From a virus, in IMG/VR virus record IMGVR_UViG_3300046472_000079, positions 1 to 22,646 of that record: a DNA stretch of 22,646 nt. The stretch is one strand, 5' to 3'. Both the position numbers and the translations under genes were made by a program. The notes under the pieces were generated by a model. That model worked only from the letters and a program-made list of their open reading frames with translations. It was not told the origin of the DNA and did not search any database. This document shows, piece after piece, positions 5,598-21,869 of this stretch (position 1 is its first letter; each line of letters opens with the position of its first letter).

Positions 5598-6044
5598 ATG
5601 ATCCGACTCGCCACACACGAAGACATGCCGTCGCTTCTGCGCATGGCGCGCGCGCTGGTCGCGGAGGGCCGCTTTGCGTCGTTCGGATTCGTCGAGCAAA
5701 AGGTGTTCACGCTTTTCACCGCGTTGATCGACGGCGCCGGCGCGATCTTCGTCAACGAGCGCAATGGCGAACTCGTCGGCGCTATGGCTTGCGGGAAGTC
5801 GCAGGACTGGTTCTCGGATCTTCCGCTCACGTACGACTACGGCGTTTTCGTGTGGCCTGAACACCGCGGCACGTTCGCTGGCTTCTCGCTCATGCGCGCT
5901 TACGTTGAATGGGCGAACAGCCTCGGACCGCGGGTGAACGTGAACATCGGCGTCACGTCAGGCATCGACGAGGAGCGCACGGTCGCGCTTTATGGATTGC
6001 TCGGCCTGAATCGGGTCGGCACGGCGCTTTCGAATCAGGGGTGA
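5598..6044 (+). CDS. GNAT-family N-acetyltransferase-like protein in the virion gene block
   Basis: 148 residues. The beginning MIRLATHEDMPSLLRMARAL fits the first strand and helix of GNAT enzymes. GAIFVNERNGELVGAMACG fits strands 2-4, and YGVFVWPEHRGTFAGFSLMRAYVEWA fits the acetyl-CoA-binding strand-loop-helix. The usual Q/RxxGxG/A loop is replaced by EHRGTFAG, which keeps the R-G-x-x-x-G pattern. The C-terminal LYGLLGLNRVG fits the last strand pair. GNAT enzymes transfer acetyl from acetyl-CoA to amines, so a protein or small-molecule target is possible; the substrate is unknown. Three bases separate it from each neighbour, so it is part of the structural operon. It could instead be a virion protein that keeps a GNAT fold. 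Confidence 0.7.
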   Translation: MIRLATHEDMPSLLRMARALVAEGRFASFGFVEQKVFTLFTALIDGAGAIFVNERNGELVGAMACGKSQDWFSDLPLTYDYGVFVWPEHRGTFAGFSLMRAYVEWANSLGPRVNVNIGVTSGIDEERTVALYGLLGLNRVGTALSNQG

Positions 6045-6047
6045 CTC

Positions 6048-6575
6048 ATGGCATGGCTCGCACTCGTTGCGCAGGCTGGCGGGGCAGTGGTGAACGCGCA
6101 AGGGCAGAAACAGCAGGCCGACGCGCAGGCCCAGCAACTCACCATGCAGGCCAATCAGGACGATCAGACGGCGGATATGACGCAATCGGCGGGATATCAG
6201 GCTGCGCGGCGCATTCGTACGCAGGGCGCGTCAAACATCGGGCAGGCAAACGCCGCGATCGCGGCGTCAGGCGTCGACGTTAGCCAGGGCACGGCGAACG
6301 ATGTGCGCGAGAAGATCACGCAGAACACCGAGCAGGACGCCCTGAACACGATTCTCAATTCTGATTCGCGTGCTTCGAATCAGAGGCTGCAGGCGTTTTA
6401 TGAGCGCCAGGGCGCCGCTGATGCCATCAAGGCGGGCCGGATGGGCTTGGCCAAGTCGGCGCTTGGCGCGTTGGGTGGCGCGAGTCAGGCCAGCGGCTGG
6501 AAGACATCGGGCGGCTCGAGCAGCTCGAGCGGCAGCGCCGACACATCCTTCGACAATCCTTCCGACTACGGTTAA
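6048..6575 (+). CDS. Small internal virion (ejection) protein, T7 gp14-like
   Basis: 175 residues. It begins MAWLALVAQAGGAVVNAQGQ, a short hydrophobic start, followed by a long Gln/Ala-rich helical region (KQQADAQAQQLTMQANQDDQT) with likely coiled coil. GASNIGQANAAIAASGVDVS and a Ser/Gly-rich tail (about 150-165) follow. This 'hydrophobic start, Q-rich helix, AAxGVDxSxGT' pattern is typical of the smallest ejection protein of T7-like phages (gp14) and its P22 counterpart. These leave the head and form a channel in the outer membrane. GGGGTG precedes its ATG. It is the first of four consecutive ejection-type genes. Confidence 0.75.
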   Translation: MAWLALVAQAGGAVVNAQGQKQQADAQAQQLTMQANQDDQTADMTQSAGYQAARRIRTQGASNIGQANAAIAASGVDVSQGTANDVREKITQNTEQDALNTILNSDSRASNQRLQAFYERQGAADAIKAGRMGLAKSALGALGGASQASGWKTSGGSSSSSGSADTSFDNPSDYG

Positions 6576-6578
6576 GAC

Positions 6579-8735
6579 ATGGCGCGCATCCCACTCGGCA
6601 ATCAGGGCGACACGATAAGCCAACCGGCGCAACAGGTGCAGACCAGTGCGGCGGACTTCGGCGCTCTTTCGGCGCAAGCCAAGCAGGGCGTTGGCGCGTC
6701 TCTCGAGCAACTCGGCAACACGCTCGCGACGCAACAGGCAAAGATCAACGACGATCTGCAGCGGACGGCCGCGGCGACTGCCTATCAGCAGCACGCGACC
6801 AACATGCAGTTGGCGATGCACGACGCCGGCACGAAGCTTCAAAGCGGTGAGCTCGACCAGACAGGCTATCAGGCTGCTGTCACGGACGCGCAGAAGCAGT
6901 CGTTCGACTCAACTATTGGTGCGCTGCCTGACAACCACTACAAAAACGTTGCGAGCATCCAGGCGCAAGGGGTCAATCGCACGGTCCAACTCGGCACTCA
7001 GGAAGCGCTGACGAAGAACTCGCAGCAGCAGATTGCCGCGAACGCCAATTCATTGCTCGACACGGCGGGAAAAAGCATCGCCGTCGCGCCGGCCACGATC
7101 GATTCGACTGTCGCGAGCACGCGCTCCGCATATCTCAGTGCGGCCGCCGCGGCAGGCATCCCGAAGCCGACCGCCGACAAGGTCGCGCAGGACTGGGCGG
7201 ACAACCAGTATGCGGCCCACGCAGAGGGCGCCGTCATCGCTGCTCGAGCGAATGGCGACCTCCCAGCGCTTCAAAAACTGCAGGCCGACCTGACTTCGCC
7301 GGACGGGTTCTATGCTGGCAAGCTCGACGCGAACGCGCGCAATCGCGTGCTGTCGACGGCGGTGTCGCAAAGCCTCGCTATGCAGAACCAGACGGACGCC
7401 GCGGCGCAGGCCCGCGAGACGCAGGCCGCTAGCGCATTCAATCAAGGCCTCGACCTGATGAATCAGGGCAAGCAGTTCAGCCCGGCATACATCAAGCAAC
7501 TCACCGAAACGACGGCCGGCACCTCGCTTGCCGGCCAGACGCAGGAACTGATTGCAGGAAGCGCGAAGAACGCGGGCTTCTCGACGCTGCCCATTCCGCA
7601 GATGCGCACCGCAATTCAGGCCGACCAGGCTGCGGCGAACACGCCCGGCGTCGGCACTGATCCGGCGATCGCGGCAGCGGTGAAGCAGCGGCAGCAGATC
7701 TACACCGCGAGCGTCGAGGCGTATCAGAAAGACCCGTGGAACGCCGCGCTCGATCGAGGCGTGATTCAGGCCATGCCGCCGATCGATACCTCGAGCATCC
7801 CAGCGCTTACCGCATCGCTCGCCGCGCGTAGCAAAGCGGCAGGCATCGTCGATCAGGCTGCTGGCCGTCAGGTCTCGCTGCTCACTCCGGATGAGGCTCA
7901 GAACGTCCTGAAGACCGTCACGGCACTTCCCGTAGATGCTCAGGCCCAGATGCTCAATGGCATCGGCGGTGCGTTTGGGCAAGGCCCGCGCATCAATGAT
8001 CTGGCCAAGCAGTGGGAAGAAAAGAACCCGGCCGTCGCGCTCGCGCTGAAGGCGGGCGCCGCCGGCGGCAACGGCTCGCCGCTGACGACGATCACCGGCC
8101 AGCCGGTCGGCGCGTTCATCCTCTCCGGCCAGCAGGCGATCACGGACAAGACTGTCAAGGTCGACGAAATGGCCGGTACCGGCATGCACTCGAAGATCGC
8201 CAGCGCGATCGACGGCGCGATGCCGCCGGATCAGGCGACGGACGCCAAGGAAAGCGCCTATTACATCGCGATCGGCAGCGCCGCGCGCAACGGTCGCACG
8301 ACTCCGAACAGCACTGACATCCAGAACGGCATTGACGCAGCGACGGGCGGCATATCCAACACCGGCGGCACCCGCTACAACGGCAACCCGAATCGGGTGG
8401 CGATGCCATACGGCTGGAAAGAGAGCGATTTCCAGTCGAGCGTCAAGAGCGCGGACGCCAGCAACATCGAGAACATGGTCGGCGGCAAGCCGATCGACAC
8501 GGTCTACGCCAACGGAAAGCCGATCCCGGTGAACGACTTCATGTCGAAGTTCCCCAGCTATCAGCTGGTGCGAGTCGGCGTGCGCGGGACGTACGCGGTT
8601 GCGACCGGTTCGAAGTTCGTTCAGGACTCCACTGGTGCTCCCGTAACAGTTCACCTTTCGCTCGGGCAGAAAGCCAAGCCTGCTGCGTCGGCCGCCGCTG
8701 CATCGACGCCCGACACGATCAATAACCCGTTCTGA
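6579..8735 (+). CDS. Internal virion (ejection) protein, T7 gp15-like
   Basis: 718 residues, near the size of T7 gp15 (747). It starts MARIPLGNQGDTISQPAQQV, followed by long Ala/Gln-rich helical stretches through most of the protein. Short non-helical islands occur (ITGQPVGAFILSGQQAI, FMSKFPSYQLVRVGVRGTYA), and the C-terminus ends DTINNPF. There is no signal peptide and no clear enzymatic motif. By size, helical content and its place between the small ejection protein and the transglycosylase protein, it is the middle ejection protein. That protein would extend the DNA conduit across the periplasm. It is separated from its neighbours by 3 and 7 bases. Very long minus-strand open frames in this gene come from third-position GC bias. 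Confidence 0.75.
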   Translation: MARIPLGNQGDTISQPAQQVQTSAADFGALSAQAKQGVGASLEQLGNTLATQQAKINDDLQRTAAATAYQQHATNMQLAMHDAGTKLQSGELDQTGYQAAVTDAQKQSFDSTIGALPDNHYKNVASIQAQGVNRTVQLGTQEALTKNSQQQIAANANSLLDTAGKSIAVAPATIDSTVASTRSAYLSAAAAAGIPKPTADKVAQDWADNQYAAHAEGAVIAARANGDLPALQKLQADLTSPDGFYAGKLDANARNRVLSTAVSQSLAMQNQTDAAAQARETQAASAFNQGLDLMNQGKQFSPAYIKQLTETTAGTSLAGQTQELIAGSAKNAGFSTLPIPQMRTAIQADQAAANTPGVGTDPAIAAAVKQRQQIYTASVEAYQKDPWNAALDRGVIQAMPPIDTSSIPALTASLAARSKAAGIVDQAAGRQVSLLTPDEAQNVLKTVTALPVDAQAQMLNGIGGAFGQGPRINDLAKQWEEKNPAVALALKAGAAGGNGSPLTTITGQPVGAFILSGQQAITDKTVKVDEMAGTGMHSKIASAIDGAMPPDQATDAKESAYYIAIGSAARNGRTTPNSTDIQNGIDAATGGISNTGGTRYNGNPNRVAMPYGWKESDFQSSVKSADASNIENMVGGKPIDTVYANGKPIPVNDFMSKFPSYQLVRVGVRGTYAVATGSKFVQDSTGAPVTVHLSLGQKAKPAASAAAASTPDTINNPF

Positions 8736-8742
8736 GGCCACC

Positions 8743-11025
8743 ATGCCGATTGATGACCTCTACGCGGAATCGACGAACCAGTACCTGGCTGGCTCGAATC
8801 AGGTGAATGTGCCGGCGCCTCAGACCGCGCCGTCGACGTCTATCAGTTCGATCGCTCGCGCGGTGGGCCGCGGCTTCGGTCAGGGTACGCTGCAGTTCGG
8901 CGGCGGCCTGTCTGACACTGTCGCTGGCGCATCGCAGATCTTCGTTGATCCTGACACGCTCGCACTGAACCCGAACGCGCAGGCCGACGCCGACAAGCAG
9001 ATCAATGACGCGATCGCGAAGCAGCAGGCCGGCCATTTATTCGAATCGAAGCTCGGCACCTCGGCGTATGACCTGGCCGACACGCTGAAGCCTGACCCGA
9101 CGAAGACCACCGCGACCGATCAGATTGTGCAGGGCGCCGTGAGTGGCCTCACGCAACTCGTCCCGTCGACGCTGCTGTTCGGTCCTGTCGGCGGCGCGGT
9201 GGCCGGAGGCGCGTCGATCGGCTTGGCGCGGTCGGAAGACCTGAAGCGCCAGGGCGTAGATGTCGGCACGCGTACCGCTGTCGGCGCGGTCGAAGGTTCG
9301 CTCAGTGGCGTCGGCGCCGTGCTTCCGGTTGCTGGGTCGACACTCGCCAGAACGGCTGGTCTGGTGGCCGTTGGCGGTCCCGGCATGAACATCGCGCAGG
9401 GCGTCGCCGAGAAGGCAATTCTGCGCAACTCGAACTACGACCACCTTGCCGATCAGATTGACCCGCTAGACCCGACGAGCCTTGCCGCGTCAACGCTGGT
9501 TGCTGGCATGTTCGCCGGCGCGCACGCGGTCGGCATGGCGCGCTCGGCGAAGGCTGGTGCGGCAACTGATGCAGCGGCGGCCGCGCCGAAGACCGCGCCC
9601 GTCGACGTGCCGCTCACTGATTTGCCTGTCGATACGCGCAAGGCTTTGCGGTACAACGCGCCGCAGCTCGACGCGTACGCGACACAGGCCGCGCAGGCTG
9701 CCGGCGTGCCGCCCGAAATGCTGCTGTTCATCAAGAACAAGGGCGAGCAGTCGAACAGCAATCAGGTGAGCCCGAAGGGCGCGAAGGGTGTCATGCAGTT
9801 CACCGACCCGACATTCGCGCAATTCGGCAAGGGCGATCCTACCGACCCAGTCAACTCGATCGATGCGGCCGCAGCGTATGCGAAGGATCTGCTGCAGCGT
9901 TACGACGGCGATGTGCGTGCGGCGATCACGGAATACAACGGCGGCGTGAAGCAGGCCGAGGCTGTGCACGCCGGCGGCGCGCCGACCGATCCTGAGACGA
10001 TCAAGTATCTGCGCAAGTACGACCGGTTCGCGGCCACGCAGCAGATCAACAGCGTGAAGTTCAATGCGACGCCCGACCAGGTCGACGCCGCGCTGGTGTC
10101 GCACGGCCAGAACATGGTTGACGACGCAAACATTCTGCCGGAGACGGACGTTGCGGGAATGAGCGCGCATCAGGACGCATTCGAGCTGGCGGCGAACCAG
10201 ATGAGCACCGGCGCGTTTCCTGACATCACCGATGGTATCCCGGCGGATGCGACGAGTCGCGCGGCGTATCAGGCGTTCGAACGCGATGTCGGCGACGCTG
10301 CCGTAGGCGGCGGCGAACAATCCAGATCAGAGCTTGAGCCGAACGCCTTTGGGCCTGTGCACGATAACTTCCGCGGCGATGCGCAGGGCGCCGTTTCACG
10401 CCTGATGGCTGATCAGACGGGCGAGGCCACCGCGGCGCTGAGCCATCCGGACATTGGCGATATCGATCTGGTCTACGGCAAGCCGCCCGAAGGTAGAAAC
10501 CCGGGCTTCGGCCTCGCCAAGATCGCGCAGAAGCATCCCGAAGTGATGGATGATCTGCAGGGGTTTCTGTCGAGATTGCGCCGCGATGATGCTGGCTCTG
10601 GCTCGAATCGCGTTCGCCTGAGCGACGACAACGGCGTTGCGATGGTGAGCTTGAACTGGAAGGGGGCGGAAAAGAAGTGGCTGCTTACTGCCTATGAGAA
10701 GAAGGCCGGCAGAGACGCTAGTATAGACACCGCCTCTGTGAAACCCGCGGATGACACAGCTAGCCGCGGGACCGGCAATGAAATTGTAGGCGGTCCAGGT
10801 GGCGAAGGCAAGCAACTGAGCCCCGTGGAGTCCAACGTGCGCGAGGCTGCGCAGCTGGCACCGGAAACGCCGGTTCATCTGGACTCGTCTGACCCGAACG
10901 CGGCCGAGCATAACGGCACGCTCGCGTCGGCGCTCGAGATCATCGACAACGAGCATGCCGCCACAGTGGACGACGCAAAGCTATTCAGCGTCGCGGCGAA
11001 CTGCTTCATTGCAACGGGGTTCTGA
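8743..11025 (+). CDS. Ejection protein with lytic transglycosylase domain and C-terminal BECR/PBECR-type nuclease-like domain
   Basis: 760 residues; ATG preceded by TGAGG. Residues 1-290 are Ala/Gly-rich with hydrophobic patches (about 142-165, 185-215). Residues about 304-425 form a soluble-lytic-transglycosylase domain: putative catalytic Glu335 in GEQSNSN, then SPKGAKGVMQF (343-353) and YNGG (398-401). This would cut peptidoglycan during DNA entry. Residues about 545-655 (SHPDIGDIDLVYGK, GFGLAKIAQKHPEV, WKGAEKKWLLTAYEKK) match my memory of the phage 'Barnase-EndoU-ColicinE5/D-RelE-like nuclease' (PBECR) domains. His598 and Thr649 are candidate active-site residues. A low-complexity linker (656-695) and a conserved-looking tail ending AANCFIATGF follow. 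The linker contains a 7-bp inverted repeat in the DNA (10744-10770). Transglycosylase call is firm, nuclease call good but untested. Confidence 0.85.
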   Translation: MPIDDLYAESTNQYLAGSNQVNVPAPQTAPSTSISSIARAVGRGFGQGTLQFGGGLSDTVAGASQIFVDPDTLALNPNAQADADKQINDAIAKQQAGHLFESKLGTSAYDLADTLKPDPTKTTATDQIVQGAVSGLTQLVPSTLLFGPVGGAVAGGASIGLARSEDLKRQGVDVGTRTAVGAVEGSLSGVGAVLPVAGSTLARTAGLVAVGGPGMNIAQGVAEKAILRNSNYDHLADQIDPLDPTSLAASTLVAGMFAGAHAVGMARSAKAGAATDAAAAAPKTAPVDVPLTDLPVDTRKALRYNAPQLDAYATQAAQAAGVPPEMLLFIKNKGEQSNSNQVSPKGAKGVMQFTDPTFAQFGKGDPTDPVNSIDAAAAYAKDLLQRYDGDVRAAITEYNGGVKQAEAVHAGGAPTDPETIKYLRKYDRFAATQQINSVKFNATPDQVDAALVSHGQNMVDDANILPETDVAGMSAHQDAFELAANQMSTGAFPDITDGIPADATSRAAYQAFERDVGDAAVGGGEQSRSELEPNAFGPVHDNFRGDAQGAVSRLMADQTGEATAALSHPDIGDIDLVYGKPPEGRNPGFGLAKIAQKHPEVMDDLQGFLSRLRRDDAGSGSNRVRLSDDNGVAMVSLNWKGAEKKWLLTAYEKKAGRDASIDTASVKPADDTASRGTGNEIVGGPGGEGKQLSPVESNVREAAQLAPETPVHLDSSDPNAAEHNGTLASALEIIDNEHAATVDDAKLFSVAANCFIATGF

Positions 11026-11026
11026 A

Positions 11027-13633
11027 ATGCATGACAAATGCGCAAATGCGGTGCAGCAGGTTCGCGAGGCCGCTGGCCGCAAGCCGCTGACCAAGGCTGA
11101 ACTCGACCACATCGAGGATCGCGTACGCGCCGGGATGCGTTCTGTCGCGAACAAAGACATCGACGCCTGGCGCGGCATGTCCGTCAATGAGCGCGTCGCT
11201 GCCGGGGCTGAGTGGGCATCGAAGCAACTGATTCAGGAAGCGGAACTCGCGAAGCAGCGCAAGCTGTTGCAGGTGTCGAAGCAACTCGAAACGCAAAACC
11301 GGATCGAGGACGCGCTTTACGCAGAGCCCGAAAAAGCTCACTCCAAAAATGCGCGCCAGAAGGTCGTCAAACACGACATCGAGCAGGCTTACGTCATGTC
11401 CGGCGCGATCAAGGCCGACTACATGCGCCAGACGATGGGCGCGATTGACGCGATGAAGGAAGGTCAGAACTTCCTCGCGCGTGCATTCGACGTCGACAAT
11501 CCCGCAATGGAGCGCGACATCATTCGCGAGATCTACAAGAAGGCGGACGGTTCGACAGGTAACGACGTGGCGAAGGCCGCGGCGGAGCAGATCAGCAAGA
11601 CAAACGAGGCGATGCGCAAGCGCTTCAACGCATCCGGCGGCAATGTCGGCGACGTGGGCTATGGCTACGTGCCGATCCGGCACAGTCAATCGAAGGTGCT
11701 CGGCAATGGCTCGGACGTGCAGCGCCGCGCGTGGGCTGATTTCGTGCTGCCGTTGCTCGATCGCTCGAAGTATCTGAACGACAACGGCGACGTAATGACT
11801 GATGGCGAGGTGCGCCAGATGCTGACTGGCGAGGCGCGCGGTCCGTGGCAGGAAGCGAACATTGCCGCGAAGGGGAAAGACGTCAAGAAACGCGCACCCG
11901 GCATCTGGGACGAAATCGCCGGCACGTCACCGCGCGAGATCACGACCGTCCGCGGCGCGGTCGGCGCCCGCGCTAACGCTAACTCCGAACATCGCTTTCT
12001 ACACTTCGTCGACGCCGACGCGCACATGGATTACAACCGCGCCTATGGCGAGGGTTCGCTGCTGAATGCCTTGAACGATCACGTCACCGGCATGGCGAAG
12101 AACATCGCGCTGGTCGAGCGGTACGGCCCGAATCCTACGCGCAACATCATGGCGCAGATCGACCGCACGGCCGAGCACGACGGCACGCCGGTGCGTATCC
12201 TCGAGAAAGGCCCGACGTCGATCGGTGCCTATTGGGACTACGTCAACGGAAACACGAACACACCGATCGATCCGGAGCTCGCGCGCAATTTCCAGACTGT
12301 CCGGACAACGGTCGGTGCGATCAAGCTGCAGGGCACGCTTCTCGCCGCGCTGGGCGACGTCGGCACCATGTTCGTGACAGCGAACTACAACAAGGTGCCA
12401 TTCTTCCGCACACTGGGCACCGCAGCGCGCCTGATGGCGCCGGGCTCGAAAGATCTGCGTTCGTGGTTGTCGTCGCAAGGGCTGATCGCTGAAAACCTCG
12501 AGCACGGCATGACGCGCTGGGGGCAAGACAATCTCGCGACTGACTGGGCGAAAAACCTTTCGGCGGCGACGATGAAGTTCGGCGGCGTGACCGGCTGGAC
12601 GGATGCGCTTCGGACCGGCTTCCAGGCCAACATGATGCGCGGCCTCGCCGAGATCTCGAAGACGCCTTGGGCAGACCTGACCGAGTGGGACCGGCGCGCG
12701 CTGACGCGCGGGGGAATCACGAATGGCGATTGGGATGTGGTCAACAAAGCCGAACCGAGTAAGTTCGGCAGCAATCAATATCTGACGCCAGACTCGATCT
12801 ATGAGACGGGCCACGCCGACGCGTCGAACATCGCGCCGAAGCTGCTCGGCATGATTCGCGAGGAAGGCGAGTTCGCCGTGCTGAATCCCGACCTGACGAC
12901 GAAGGTGATTGCGTCGGGCAACTCGGGCACGTGGAAGGGCGAGCTGCAGAAGACGTTCATGCAGTTCAAGAGCTTCCCAATCGCGATGATCACGCGCCAC
13001 TGGGGGCGACTGTCGGAAATGCGCCGCTCGGGAGATTTCAAGGTCGACGGCGCACCGGCACTCGCTAACCCGCTGGCATACGGTACCGCGCTGATCGTCA
13101 GCACGACGCTGATCGGTGCCATCACGACGGAAATCAAGAATCTGCTGGCCGGCAAAGATCCGGAGTCGGTGGGCGGCGACCTGAAGCACGCAGCGTCGTT
13201 CTGGACGCGCGCCTTCACGACCGGCGGCGGCGCGGGCTTTGCGGGTGACATGTTGAACGCAGCTCTAACCAGCAACGACTACGGCTCGCTGCTGTCCAGT
13301 CTGGTCGGCGGCCCGGTGCTATCGACTATCTTTCAGCCTGTGCACGCGCTGGCGGAGAATGCGGCCGATGCATCCGAAGGTAAGGACACGCACGTTGGCG
13401 CCGATCTGGTGAAGGTCGCAAAGTCAAATTTACCGCTTGTGAATTTATGGTATTGGCGCACGGTCATGAACCGCCTGATCTGGGACAATCTCGCCGAGAA
13501 CGTTTCGCCGGGCGTGACGCAACGGAACATCAACAAGTCGAACAAAGAGTTCGGCAACGATTACTGGTGGCAGCCGGGATCGACGTCGCCGCAGCGCGCG
13601 CCGAATCTCGCAACAGTGGCGGGGGCACAATAA
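11027..13633 (+). CDS. Large internal virion (ejection) protein, T7 gp16 C-terminal-like
   Basis: 868 residues. I chose ATG 11027, one base after the previous stop, with ACGGGG upstream. An upstream in-frame start at 10955 would overlap the previous gene by 71 bases and adds unlikely sequence. The N-terminal third is a charged helix region (about 1-200). The middle has a conserved-looking block FLHFVDADAHMDYNRAYGEG. The C-terminal third contains QKTFMQFKSFPIAMITRHWG (about 641-660) and a hydrophobic segment, about 682-705, that could span a membrane. The FMQFKSFP-type motif and following hydrophobic segment are common in the largest ejection proteins of T7-like phages. With the preceding transglycosylase protein it appears to divide the roles of the single T7 gp16. 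The stop overlaps the next start (TAATG). Confidence 0.78.
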   Translation: MHDKCANAVQQVREAAGRKPLTKAELDHIEDRVRAGMRSVANKDIDAWRGMSVNERVAAGAEWASKQLIQEAELAKQRKLLQVSKQLETQNRIEDALYAEPEKAHSKNARQKVVKHDIEQAYVMSGAIKADYMRQTMGAIDAMKEGQNFLARAFDVDNPAMERDIIREIYKKADGSTGNDVAKAAAEQISKTNEAMRKRFNASGGNVGDVGYGYVPIRHSQSKVLGNGSDVQRRAWADFVLPLLDRSKYLNDNGDVMTDGEVRQMLTGEARGPWQEANIAAKGKDVKKRAPGIWDEIAGTSPREITTVRGAVGARANANSEHRFLHFVDADAHMDYNRAYGEGSLLNALNDHVTGMAKNIALVERYGPNPTRNIMAQIDRTAEHDGTPVRILEKGPTSIGAYWDYVNGNTNTPIDPELARNFQTVRTTVGAIKLQGTLLAALGDVGTMFVTANYNKVPFFRTLGTAARLMAPGSKDLRSWLSSQGLIAENLEHGMTRWGQDNLATDWAKNLSAATMKFGGVTGWTDALRTGFQANMMRGLAEISKTPWADLTEWDRRALTRGGITNGDWDVVNKAEPSKFGSNQYLTPDSIYETGHADASNIAPKLLGMIREEGEFAVLNPDLTTKVIASGNSGTWKGELQKTFMQFKSFPIAMITRHWGRLSEMRRSGDFKVDGAPALANPLAYGTALIVSTTLIGAITTEIKNLLAGKDPESVGGDLKHAASFWTRAFTTGGGAGFAGDMLNAALTSNDYGSLLSSLVGGPVLSTIFQPVHALAENAADASEGKDTHVGADLVKVAKSNLPLVNLWYWRTVMNRLIWDNLAENVSPGVTQRNINKSNKEFGNDYWWQPGSTSPQRAPNLATVAGAQ

Positions 13634-14115
13634 TGTTGACGATCGAACGCTTGAAGCATCTGCTGCACTACGACCCTGATACAGGTGTTTTCACGCATCG
13701 CGTGGCACGCAAAAGAGTGGTGGTTGGCGAAGAGGCTGGGCATGTCGATGCGAGCCACGGCTACCGCACGATCTGTATCGACTATAAAAAGTACTACGCC
13801 CATAGACTGGCGATCTTTTATATGACGGGTGAATGGCCGACTAAGCTGGTCGATCACTGGGATACCAATCGCCTTAACAATCGATACAAAAATCTGCGCG
13901 ATGCGTCACGGCTGGTGAATCAGCAGAATCTGCGCAAAGCGAATACGGATAACTCATCCGGACTACTTGGAGCCCATAAGAAGAGGGGCAAGTGGTCTTC
14001 ACAAATCCGCGTTTCTGGGAAGGTAATCCGGCTCGGCAGTTTCGATACTGCCGAGCAAGCCCATGAGGCCTACGTCAGCGCAAAACGTGAATTGCATGTG
14101 GGGTGCACGCTATGA
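13633..14115 (+). CDS. HNH endonuclease with AP2 DNA-binding domain (free-standing homing type)
   Basis: 160 residues. ATG 13633 overlaps the upstream stop as TAATG; a longer open frame starting at 13447 lies inside the previous gene and is not used. The N-terminal DPDTGVFTHRV and YYAHRLAIFYMTGEWP, then VDHWDTNRLNNRYKNLR (about 74-90), form the HNH_3-type fold with the central His-Asn core. The C-terminal NSSGLLGAHKK...KWSSQIRVSGKVIRLGSF and TAEQAHEAYVSAKRELH form an AP2 domain. Such proteins nick or cut DNA and spread by homing. It sits between the ejection gene and the terminase pair without breaking either. Its codon and base use look slightly more AT-rich than its neighbours, consistent with later insertion. 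The next gene overlaps by ATGA. Confidence 0.9.
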   Translation: MLTIERLKHLLHYDPDTGVFTHRVARKRVVVGEEAGHVDASHGYRTICIDYKKYYAHRLAIFYMTGEWPTKLVDHWDTNRLNNRYKNLRDASRLVNQQNLRKANTDNSSGLLGAHKKRGKWSSQIRVSGKVIRLGSFDTAEQAHEAYVSAKRELHVGCTL

Positions 14116-20765: not shown

Positions 20766-21869
20766 ATGCCCGGCATACGGGCGATGACTCACCCCAAATC
20801 CGGCCGCATCGCAGGCCTAGACGGGCTCCGCGCGCTGTCGGTTCTCGCAGTCTTCCTATCCCACACCGGTCTTGCTGGCGTCGATGGCGGATTTATTGGC
20901 GTCGATGTGTTCTTCGTCCTGAGCGGCTTCCTGATTACGCGCCTGCTGGCTGCAGAGTATTCGCGCGAGCACCGCATCAGTCTTGCCGCCTTCTACGGAC
21001 GACGGGCCCGGCGCCTCTATCCGGCACTGTTCGGTGTGCTGGCAGCGGTGGCGATCTACTGCTCATTCTTCGAACCACGCCTGAGCGGCTCGTTGGAAGT
21101 CTTTCCAGCGCTTCTCTATGTGATGAATTGGGTTCGGGCATTCGGCGGTTATGATGCCGCGCTGACCGGGCACACCTGGTCGCTGGCGATCGAAGAACAG
21201 TTCTATCTTTTGTGGCCGCTCGTTCTGCTGGGTCTACTGAAGCTCGACCGGCGCCGCGCGCTGATCGGCCTGGTGGCGATCGCGCTGACGTTATGCGCAT
21301 GGCGCTACTGGCTGTTCTCCGTCGACCATGTGCGACTCGCGCGGATCTATTCGGGCTTCGACACCCACACGGACGGGCTTATCTACGGCGCATTGCTTGC
21401 GCTCATGAGTCGCGACTGGCTGCGAAAGGTCGGCTATCTTTGGCCGCTCGGTGCCGCTTACCTGTGTGTGGCGCTGTTCAATCCGCACGCGGTTAGATTT
21501 GCGGTGAATCCGCACGGCTATGCTGTCACGGCGATCGCCGCAGCGCTGGTGATCGCGCGCGTGGTGTCTGCGCAGTCGTCGCTGCTGGTTCGTGGCCTGG
21601 ATGTCGCACCGCTGTCGGGGCTCGGCCGGGTGTCCTACGGCTTCTATCTGTGGCACTACCCCGTAATCCACGTGATGCTATACGGCGGCCATGACCCGGT
21701 GATGGCATTCTTTGGCGGCTTCGCCTATCCCAAGCTTATGATGGTCGCCTCGACCTTCGCCGTCTCGCTGGCATTCACGCTGGTGTCGTGGTTCGTGATC
21801 GAGAAGCCGGCGATGCGGCTGCGCTTCCCGCGACGAGCTGACCCGGAACCTCAGCTCCAAACACGCTGA
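20766..21869 (+). CDS. Membrane O-acyltransferase (OafA/YrhL family), probable lysogenic conversion
   Basis: 367 residues from ATG 20766; ATG 20784 (MTHPKSGRIAGLDGLRAL) is equally plausible, and neither has a strong ribosome binding site. It is a typical acyltransferase-3 protein of about ten TM segments. Seen are IAGLDGLRALSVLAVFLSHT (His33), GGFIGVDVFFVLSGFLITRL, FYGRRARRLYPALF, HTWSLAIEEQFYLLWPLVLL (His136, Glu143/144), DTHTDGLIYGALLAL and YGFYLWHYPVI. The family moves acetyl or other acyl groups onto sugars across the inner membrane. Phage members modify O-antigen and change serotype or receptor. There is no SGNH domain. It lies between the late operon and the integrase, the usual spot for conversion genes, with a possible promoter of its own. 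Target sugar unknown. Confidence 0.9.
   Translation: MPGIRAMTHPKSGRIAGLDGLRALSVLAVFLSHTGLAGVDGGFIGVDVFFVLSGFLITRLLAAEYSREHRISLAAFYGRRARRLYPALFGVLAAVAIYCSFFEPRLSGSLEVFPALLYVMNWVRAFGGYDAALTGHTWSLAIEEQFYLLWPLVLLGLLKLDRRRALIGLVAIALTLCAWRYWLFSVDHVRLARIYSGFDTHTDGLIYGALLALMSRDWLRKVGYLWPLGAAYLCVALFNPHAVRFAVNPHGYAVTAIAAALVIARVVSAQSSLLVRGLDVAPLSGLGRVSYGFYLWHYPVIHVMLYGGHDPVMAFFGGFAYPKLMMVASTFAVSLAFTLVSWFVIEKPAMRLRFPRRADPEPQLQTR

What the first reader, a model, noticed from the sequence alone, without database searches (positions are those of the whole stretch)
10378..10712. Toxin-like BECR/PBECR endoribonuclease domain on an injected virion protein
The transglycosylase-bearing ejection protein has a second domain at about residues 545-655 with SHPDIGDIDLVYGK, GFGLAKIAQKHPEV and WLLTAYEKK, followed by a low-complexity linker. 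By recognition this is a phage Barnase-EndoU-ColicinE5/D-RelE-like nuclease (PBECR), a fold shared with bacterial toxins. T7-like ejection proteins enter the cell with the DNA. The phage may therefore deliver an RNase at the first moment of infection, before any gene is expressed, to cut tRNA, disable defence or kill a co-infecting competitor. The combination peptidoglycan cutter + RNase + ejection protein in one polypeptide is a strong candidate for a little-studied system. No immunity gene is obvious nearby.
Basis: partly seen in the sequence, partly recalled or inferred. Interest (0 to 1): 0.8.

Follow-up and report, generated by a model that had tools for sequence, protein, structure and literature searches.

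The report
Swappable RNase-like cargo in ejection protein
A short-tailed phage carries, inside the cell-wall-cutting protein that it probably ejects with its DNA, a predicted RNA-cutting domain that sits in a slot where close relatives carry a different domain or nothing, which suggests it is delivered cargo rather than part of the ejection machine.

Summary
The 760-aa protein at 8743-11025 has an SLT transglycosylase domain (res 312-404) and a PBECR1 domain (PF18809, 30.8 bits in the whole protein, 36.7 alone; cut-off 27.6). AlphaFold2 models the domain confidently (pLDDT 90.8). Its best solved-structure neighbours are RelE/BrnT/CdiA-type RNase toxins, with weak Z-scores. The predicted catalytic pair His598/Thr649 is kept in 70/72 and 72/72 relatives.

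What I add is a cargo slot. Among 40 distinct orthologs, the stretch between a conserved N-part and a conserved 70-residue C-tail holds PBECR1 (4, two after a coiled coil), a GNAT-like domain (2), a coiled coil alone (27), a short linker (6) or unknown sequence (1). Relatives with 93-97% identical N-parts carry PBECR1, GNAT or nothing, with sharp DNA breakpoints. Domain identity is decoupled from scaffold identity. No linked immunity gene was found.

Best reading: an optional, recombining RNase effector delivered by virions, more likely against host RNA or defence than a kin-killing toxin. The domain family and the injected-RNase idea were published in 2017 (PMC5512222). Packaging, cytosolic entry and RNase activity remain untested. 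New variant of a known kind.

The parts
8743..11025 (+). gp16-like ejection protein, 760 aa, with SLT, cargo slot and C-tail
   Evidence: ORF; Pfam and PHROG matches; 52% identical to BcepC6B gp16
9157..9540 (+). Three moderately hydrophobic regions (res 139-162, 178-211, 246-266), all before the SLT domain; candidate membrane-active part
   Evidence: 19-residue hydropathy scan, peaks 1.34-1.55
9676..9954 (+). SLT transglycosylase domain, res 312-404
   Evidence: PF01464, E 1.1e-13
10304..10813 (+). Exchangeable cassette (cargo slot), about res 521-690
   Evidence: DNA homology to L101 and L102 stops at gene nt 1561/1553 and resumes at nt 2072; slot contents in 40 orthologs
10348..10710 (+). 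PBECR1 domain with its N-terminal helix, res 536-656
   Evidence: PF18809 match 10441-10707; alignment A4; AF2 pLDDT 90.8
10534..10536 (+). Codon of His598, predicted catalytic histidine
   Evidence: Kept in 70 of 72 relatives
10687..10689 (+). Codon of Thr649, predicted catalytic threonine
   Evidence: Kept in 72 of 72 relatives
10813..11022 (+). Conserved C-tail ending VAANCFIATGF
   Evidence: Alignments of orthologs
6048..6575 (+). T7 gp14-like internal virion protein
   Evidence: phrog_418 E 9e-23; PF24072 below cut-off
6579..8735 (+). Second ejection/head protein, in the position of gp15
   Evidence: phrog_992 E 1.7e-52; position by analogy
11027..13633 (+). Virion structural protein directly downstream, no gap for an immunity gene
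   Evidence: phrog_684 E 6.6e-215 matching from res 25 of the listed ORF, i.e. the ATG at 11027

Best explanation
The protein is a T7-gp16-type ejection protein with an internal cargo slot, filled here by a PBECR1 endoribonuclease-like domain. Proposed mechanism: the protein is packaged in the virion core and leaves with the genome; its hydrophobic N-part and SLT domain help breach the envelope; the slot domain then folds in the host cytosol and cuts host RNA by a metal-independent His598/Thr649 mechanism before phage genes are expressed, most likely blunting a host defence or host translation. Phages gain, lose and exchange this domain by recombination without altering the ejection scaffold. 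Shown here: domain identity, predicted fold, conserved active-site residues, genomic context and cassette exchange. Inferred: packaging, cytosolic delivery, RNase activity and target.
For: PBECR1 above curated cut-off; confident AF2 model whose best PDB neighbours are BECR RNase toxins; His598 and Thr649 conserved; ejection-protein operon; near-identical orthologs with PBECR1, GNAT or linker in the slot and sharp breakpoints; domain identity decoupled from scaffold identity, with few nonsynonymous changes while synonymous sites are saturated, so the domain is kept under purifying selection; no linked immunity gene; published prediction that virion PBECRs are injected RNases (PMC5512222).
Against: No assay of any PBECR domain was found in the library searched. 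PDB matches are weak (Foldseek E above 0.001, VIA Z at most 4.8). Hydrophobic stretches precede SLT, unlike T7 gp16, so the side of the membrane reached by the slot is uncertain. Only 4 of 40 orthologs carry PBECR1.
Confidence: 0.5

Rival explanations
1. Kin-discriminating toxin: the domain is a polymorphic toxin arm, as in MuF phage toxins, that poisons newly infected competitors while lysogens are protected by an immunity protein.
For: Exchangeable toxin-like domain on a virion-type protein; at least one carrier is a locus in a bacterial genome, Burkholderia sp. TSV86; the MuF precedent (PMC5576092, PMC11699363).
Against: The next gene starts 1 bp after the stop codon and is structural; no gene is specific to PBECR1 carriers in the flanks examined. 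The domain is internal, not C-terminal. Poisoning its own new host would harm the phage.
Confidence: 0.12
2. Non-catalytic nucleic-acid-binding or spacer domain that helps hold or thread the genome during ejection.
For: Most orthologs have a coiled coil in the same place, which could be structural; the phage Mu MuF protein is reported to carry an inactive PBECR domain (PMC5512222).
Against: Relatives with 84-93% identical N-parts do with a short linker; the predicted catalytic residues are kept; in L005 and L022 PBECR1 is added to the coiled coil instead of replacing it.
Confidence: 0.15
3. Regulator of the phage's own early mRNA, as RegB of T4, instead of an attack on the host.
For: RegB is a phage BECR-fold RNase that cuts early mRNAs; the authors of PBECR raised phage mRNA as a possible target (PMC5512222).
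Against: Patchy presence among near-identical phages (4 of 40) fits an accessory function better than a core step of gene expression.
Confidence: 0.1

Closest known systems
PBECR1 domains of phage polyvalent proteins (Iyer et al. 2017, PMC5512222)
   Same: Same Pfam family, same His/Thr configuration, virion-gene context, fusion to peptidoglycan-cutting domains already noted.
   Different: Here in a compact 760-aa SLT ejection protein, in a slot that near-identical relatives fill differently; the other PBECR1 proteins found lack this scaffold and most are far larger.
Burkholderia phage BcepC6B gp16 (NC_005887)
   Same: Orthologous ejection protein, 52% identical, same SLT, N-part and C-tail.
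   Different: Coiled coil in the slot and no PBECR1.
Bordetella phage BPP-1 Bbp11 and Bbp10
   Same: Related phage with SLT protein and a PBECR1 domain about 50% identical to the window's.
   Different: SLT and PBECR1 are in two adjacent genes; Bbp10 is 2052 aa with LPD22.
Phage T7 gp16
   Same: SLT-bearing internal virion protein in a gene set with gp14-like protein.
   Different: In T7 the SLT is N-terminal and the membrane and cytosolic parts follow (PMC8954989); no RNase domain is described in that review.
MuF polymorphic toxins of temperate phages (PMC5576092)
   Same: Virion-type protein with exchangeable effector domains.
   Different: No MuF domain, no adjacent immunity gene, cargo internal with a conserved tail after it.

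Membership tests
PBECR1 (PF18809) | Profile match above curated cut-off | tested here: met
   30.8 bits in the whole protein and 36.7 alone against 27.6
PBECR1 (PF18809) | Histidine in a helix plus Thr/Ser near the C-terminal end | tested here: met
   His598 lies in model helix 56-63/65-77 region and Thr649 in strand 108-118; kept in 70/72 and 72/72 relatives
PBECR1 (PF18809) | BECR fold | tested here: inconclusive
   Confident model with helix-strand composition as expected; top PDB rows are BECR toxins but Z is at most 4.8 and Foldseek E exceeds 0.001
PBECR1 (PF18809) | Endoribonuclease activity | not testable with these tools
   No assay found in the literature held
T7 gp16-type ejection protein | SLT domain in a protein encoded beside other internal virion proteins | tested here: met
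   PF01464 and phrog_342, with phrog_418 and phrog_992 neighbours
T7 gp16-type ejection protein | SLT first, then membrane segment, then cytosolic C-part | tested here: not met
   Hydrophobic stretches at res 139-266 precede SLT at 312-404; so it is called gp16-like, not a gp16 ortholog in topology
T7 gp16-type ejection protein | Present in virions and ejected | not testable with these tools
   Needs virion proteomics
MuF polymorphic toxin | N-terminal MuF domain | tested here: not met
   Only SLT and PBECR1 match in Pfam
MuF polymorphic toxin | Small immunity ORF directly downstream | tested here: not met
   Next gene starts at 11027 and is a structural protein; no PBECR1-linked gene found

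The most novel reading that the evidence does not exclude
Burkholderia-type podoviruses have a dedicated cargo bay in their SLT ejection protein: one scaffold with a conserved C-tail into which effector domains (RNase, GNAT acetyltransferase, perhaps others) are swapped, so that phages change which enzyme they inject at infection independently of the genes they express later.
Probability: 0.4. Interest if true: 0.75.

Novelty: new variant of a known kind. Interest (0 to 1): 0.52.

Why it matters
PBECR domains occur in many phages, yet their function is a 2017 prediction with no assay found in the library searched. These phages offer a natural comparison: nearly identical ejection proteins with an RNase-like domain, another domain or none in one short slot. 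That makes the question of what virion-delivered RNases do directly testable by removing about 170 residues that relatives lack, in a protein of modest size instead of one of 2000-4600 residues. A real cargo bay would also be a natural protein-delivery route of short-tailed phages.

Tried and rejected
AF2 with 8 sequences gave a poor model (pLDDT 51.7), replaced by the 72-sequence model. Sequence search of the PDB with the domain profile found only chance-level hits; Colicin E5, colicin D, barnase and EndoU entries did not appear among the rows listed by the structure searches, which shows nothing either way. An immunity gene was sought by comparing PBECR1+ and PBECR1- flanks; the candidates were short frames overlapping the gp16 gene itself (mostly antisense), rejected as overlapping-frame artefacts of GC-rich DNA. 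dN/dS for L005 and L022 from the global alignment was wrong because the coiled coil shifted the domain; it was redone on the domain alone, where synonymous sites are saturated, so no ratio is quoted. The slot of L180 (RLYHGG...) looks like an ADP-ribosyltransferase by eye, but no library confirmed it. The antisense ORF 10396-10956(-) is not treated as a gene. A literature search for BPP-1 Bbp10 in virions gave nothing usable.

Full report
WHAT IS THERE. The window is a 22,646-bp virus record from IMG/VR. It carries major head, tail tubular, nozzle, ejection, terminase, fibre and lysis genes of a short-tailed phage. The nearest phage record is Burkholderia phage BcepC6B. The finding's protein runs 8743-11025 (760 aa). 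It has an SLT transglycosylase domain at res 312-404 and PBECR1 (PF18809) at res 567-655, above the curated cut-off. A profile built from 71 relatives without the window row scores the protein 155.8 bits; 1000 shuffled domains reach at most 9.8.

FOLD AND ACTIVE SITE. With a 72-sequence alignment AlphaFold2 gives pLDDT 90.8 and pTM 0.83 for res 535-661: a helix, two strands, two helices, three strands. Foldseek against the PDB gives no match below E 0.001. In the VIA re-alignment the nine best rows are toxins of the BECR type (BrnT, CdiA-CT NC101, RelE homologs), and so are about two thirds of the 50 rows listed, but Z does not exceed 4.8. I take this as support for the BECR fold by consistency, not as proof. 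Against predicted viral structures the nine matches below E 0.001 are phage proteins (TM-score by query length 0.65-0.86). His598 is kept in 70 of 72 relatives; Thr649, Lys644 and Trp646 in all 72; Arg623 in 67; His568 and Asp575 in 68. A helix histidine plus a C-terminal Thr/Ser is the configuration given for PBECR by Iyer et al. 2017 (PMC5512222).

THE SLOT. I searched for orthologs with the N-part alone (res 1-506), so that the search did not depend on PBECR1; L005 and L022 first came in through PBECR1 but L005's contig relative L120 and L022's copy L126 were also found through the N-part. Forty distinct orthologs share the N-part and a conserved tail of about 70 residues that typically ends in AANCF plus a few residues. 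What lies between differs: PBECR1 in four (window, L103, L005, L022; in the last two it follows a coiled coil), a GNAT-like domain in two (L101, L109; PF00583 just above cut-off), a coiled coil alone in 27, a short Ala/Pro-rich linker in six, and unidentified sequence in one (L110). The most telling comparison is among relatives whose N-part is 93-97% identical to the window: L103 has PBECR1, L101 has GNAT, L102 has only a linker. At the DNA level L101 is 87% identical up to gene nt 1561, unrelated for about 510 nt, and 89.5% identical again from nt 2072; L102 shows nearly the same breakpoints.

EXCHANGE AND SELECTION. Domain identity does not follow scaffold identity: L103 67% (scaffold 97%), L005 78% (57%), L022 70% (43%), and Pseudomonas phage Itty13 65% with no detectable scaffold. 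Between window and L103 the proportion of synonymous differences is 0.25 in the N-part but about 0.75, i.e. saturated, in PBECR1, where the nonsynonymous proportion is only about 0.2. The two phages therefore share a recent scaffold but carry old, different alleles of the domain, kept under purifying selection. This is what exchange of a functional cassette predicts. It argues against an essential structural part of the ejection machine, since near-identical relatives do without it.

CONTEXT ELSEWHERE. The other PBECR1 loci examined lie in proteins without this SLT scaffold, mostly very large ones. In Bordetella phage BPP-1 the SLT (bbp11, 720 aa) and PBECR1 (bbp10, 2052 aa, with LPD22) are in adjacent genes. 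In the window they are fused in one compact protein.

HOW IT MOST LIKELY WORKS. Step 1, packaging with the ejection core: inferred from the operon and from homology to internal virion proteins. Step 2, ejection and envelope breach: inferred from T7 (PMC8954989). Step 3, delivery of the slot domain to the cytosol: inferred and the weakest step, because the hydrophobic stretches come before SLT here, whereas in T7 gp16 the cytosolic part comes after SLT and membrane segments. An RNase would have little to do in the periplasm, so its retention under selection argues indirectly for cytosolic access. Step 4, RNA cleavage by His598/Thr649: predicted from family and conservation. Step 5, target: unknown. 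Patchy presence and exchange favour a host-variable target, such as a defence RNA or translation under defence, over a core step. A kin-killing toxin with immunity is less likely because no immunity gene is linked, unlike MuF toxins, most of which are followed by a small ORF (PMC5576092).

NOVELTY. The domain family, its predicted RNase role and the idea of injection were published in 2017, so this is not a new kind. New here, as far as the library searched shows, is the compact SLT ejection scaffold with an internal slot whose content is exchanged among near-identical phages. The cargo-bay reading rests on few effector-bearing examples (four PBECR1, two GNAT-like near threshold), so I give it 0.4. 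I rate the whole as a new variant of a known kind.

Noticed in passing
window 5598-6044 (+): Stand-alone GNAT acetyltransferase (PF00583, phrog_1249) between the nozzle gene and the gp14-like gene; no BLAST similarity to the GNAT-like slot domains of L101 and L109.
   Followed up: partly
window 13447-14115 (+): HNH endonuclease with a weak AP2 match beside the terminase gene.
   Followed up: no
window 20766-21869 (+): O-antigen acetylase-like protein (phrog_6705), a candidate for surface modification of the host.
   Followed up: no
L003 4359-16421: Pseudomonas phage Itty13 (MW460249) is annotated on one strand here, but the other strand holds a 4021-residue open frame with PBECR1; the annotated genes may be on the wrong strand.
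   Followed up: partly
L180 about 1165-1470: Slot sequence RLYHGG... resembles an ADP-ribosyltransferase by eye; no library match, but part of it is 44% identical to a stretch of Xanthomonas phages.
   Followed up: partly
L182 2468-4090: A relative with the N-part and C-tail but no SLT domain.
   Followed up: no
L012 4087-6279 and the frame from 6050: PBECR1 is split over two reading frames, so this copy is interrupted or holds a sequencing error.
   Followed up: no
L019, L025, L100: Two or three PBECR1 copies, in one giant protein (L019, L025) or on two separate open frames (L100).
   Followed up: no
window 10813-11022 and orthologs: The C-tail motif VAANCFI is conserved whatever the cargo; it may be a packaging or assembly signal.
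   Followed up: partly
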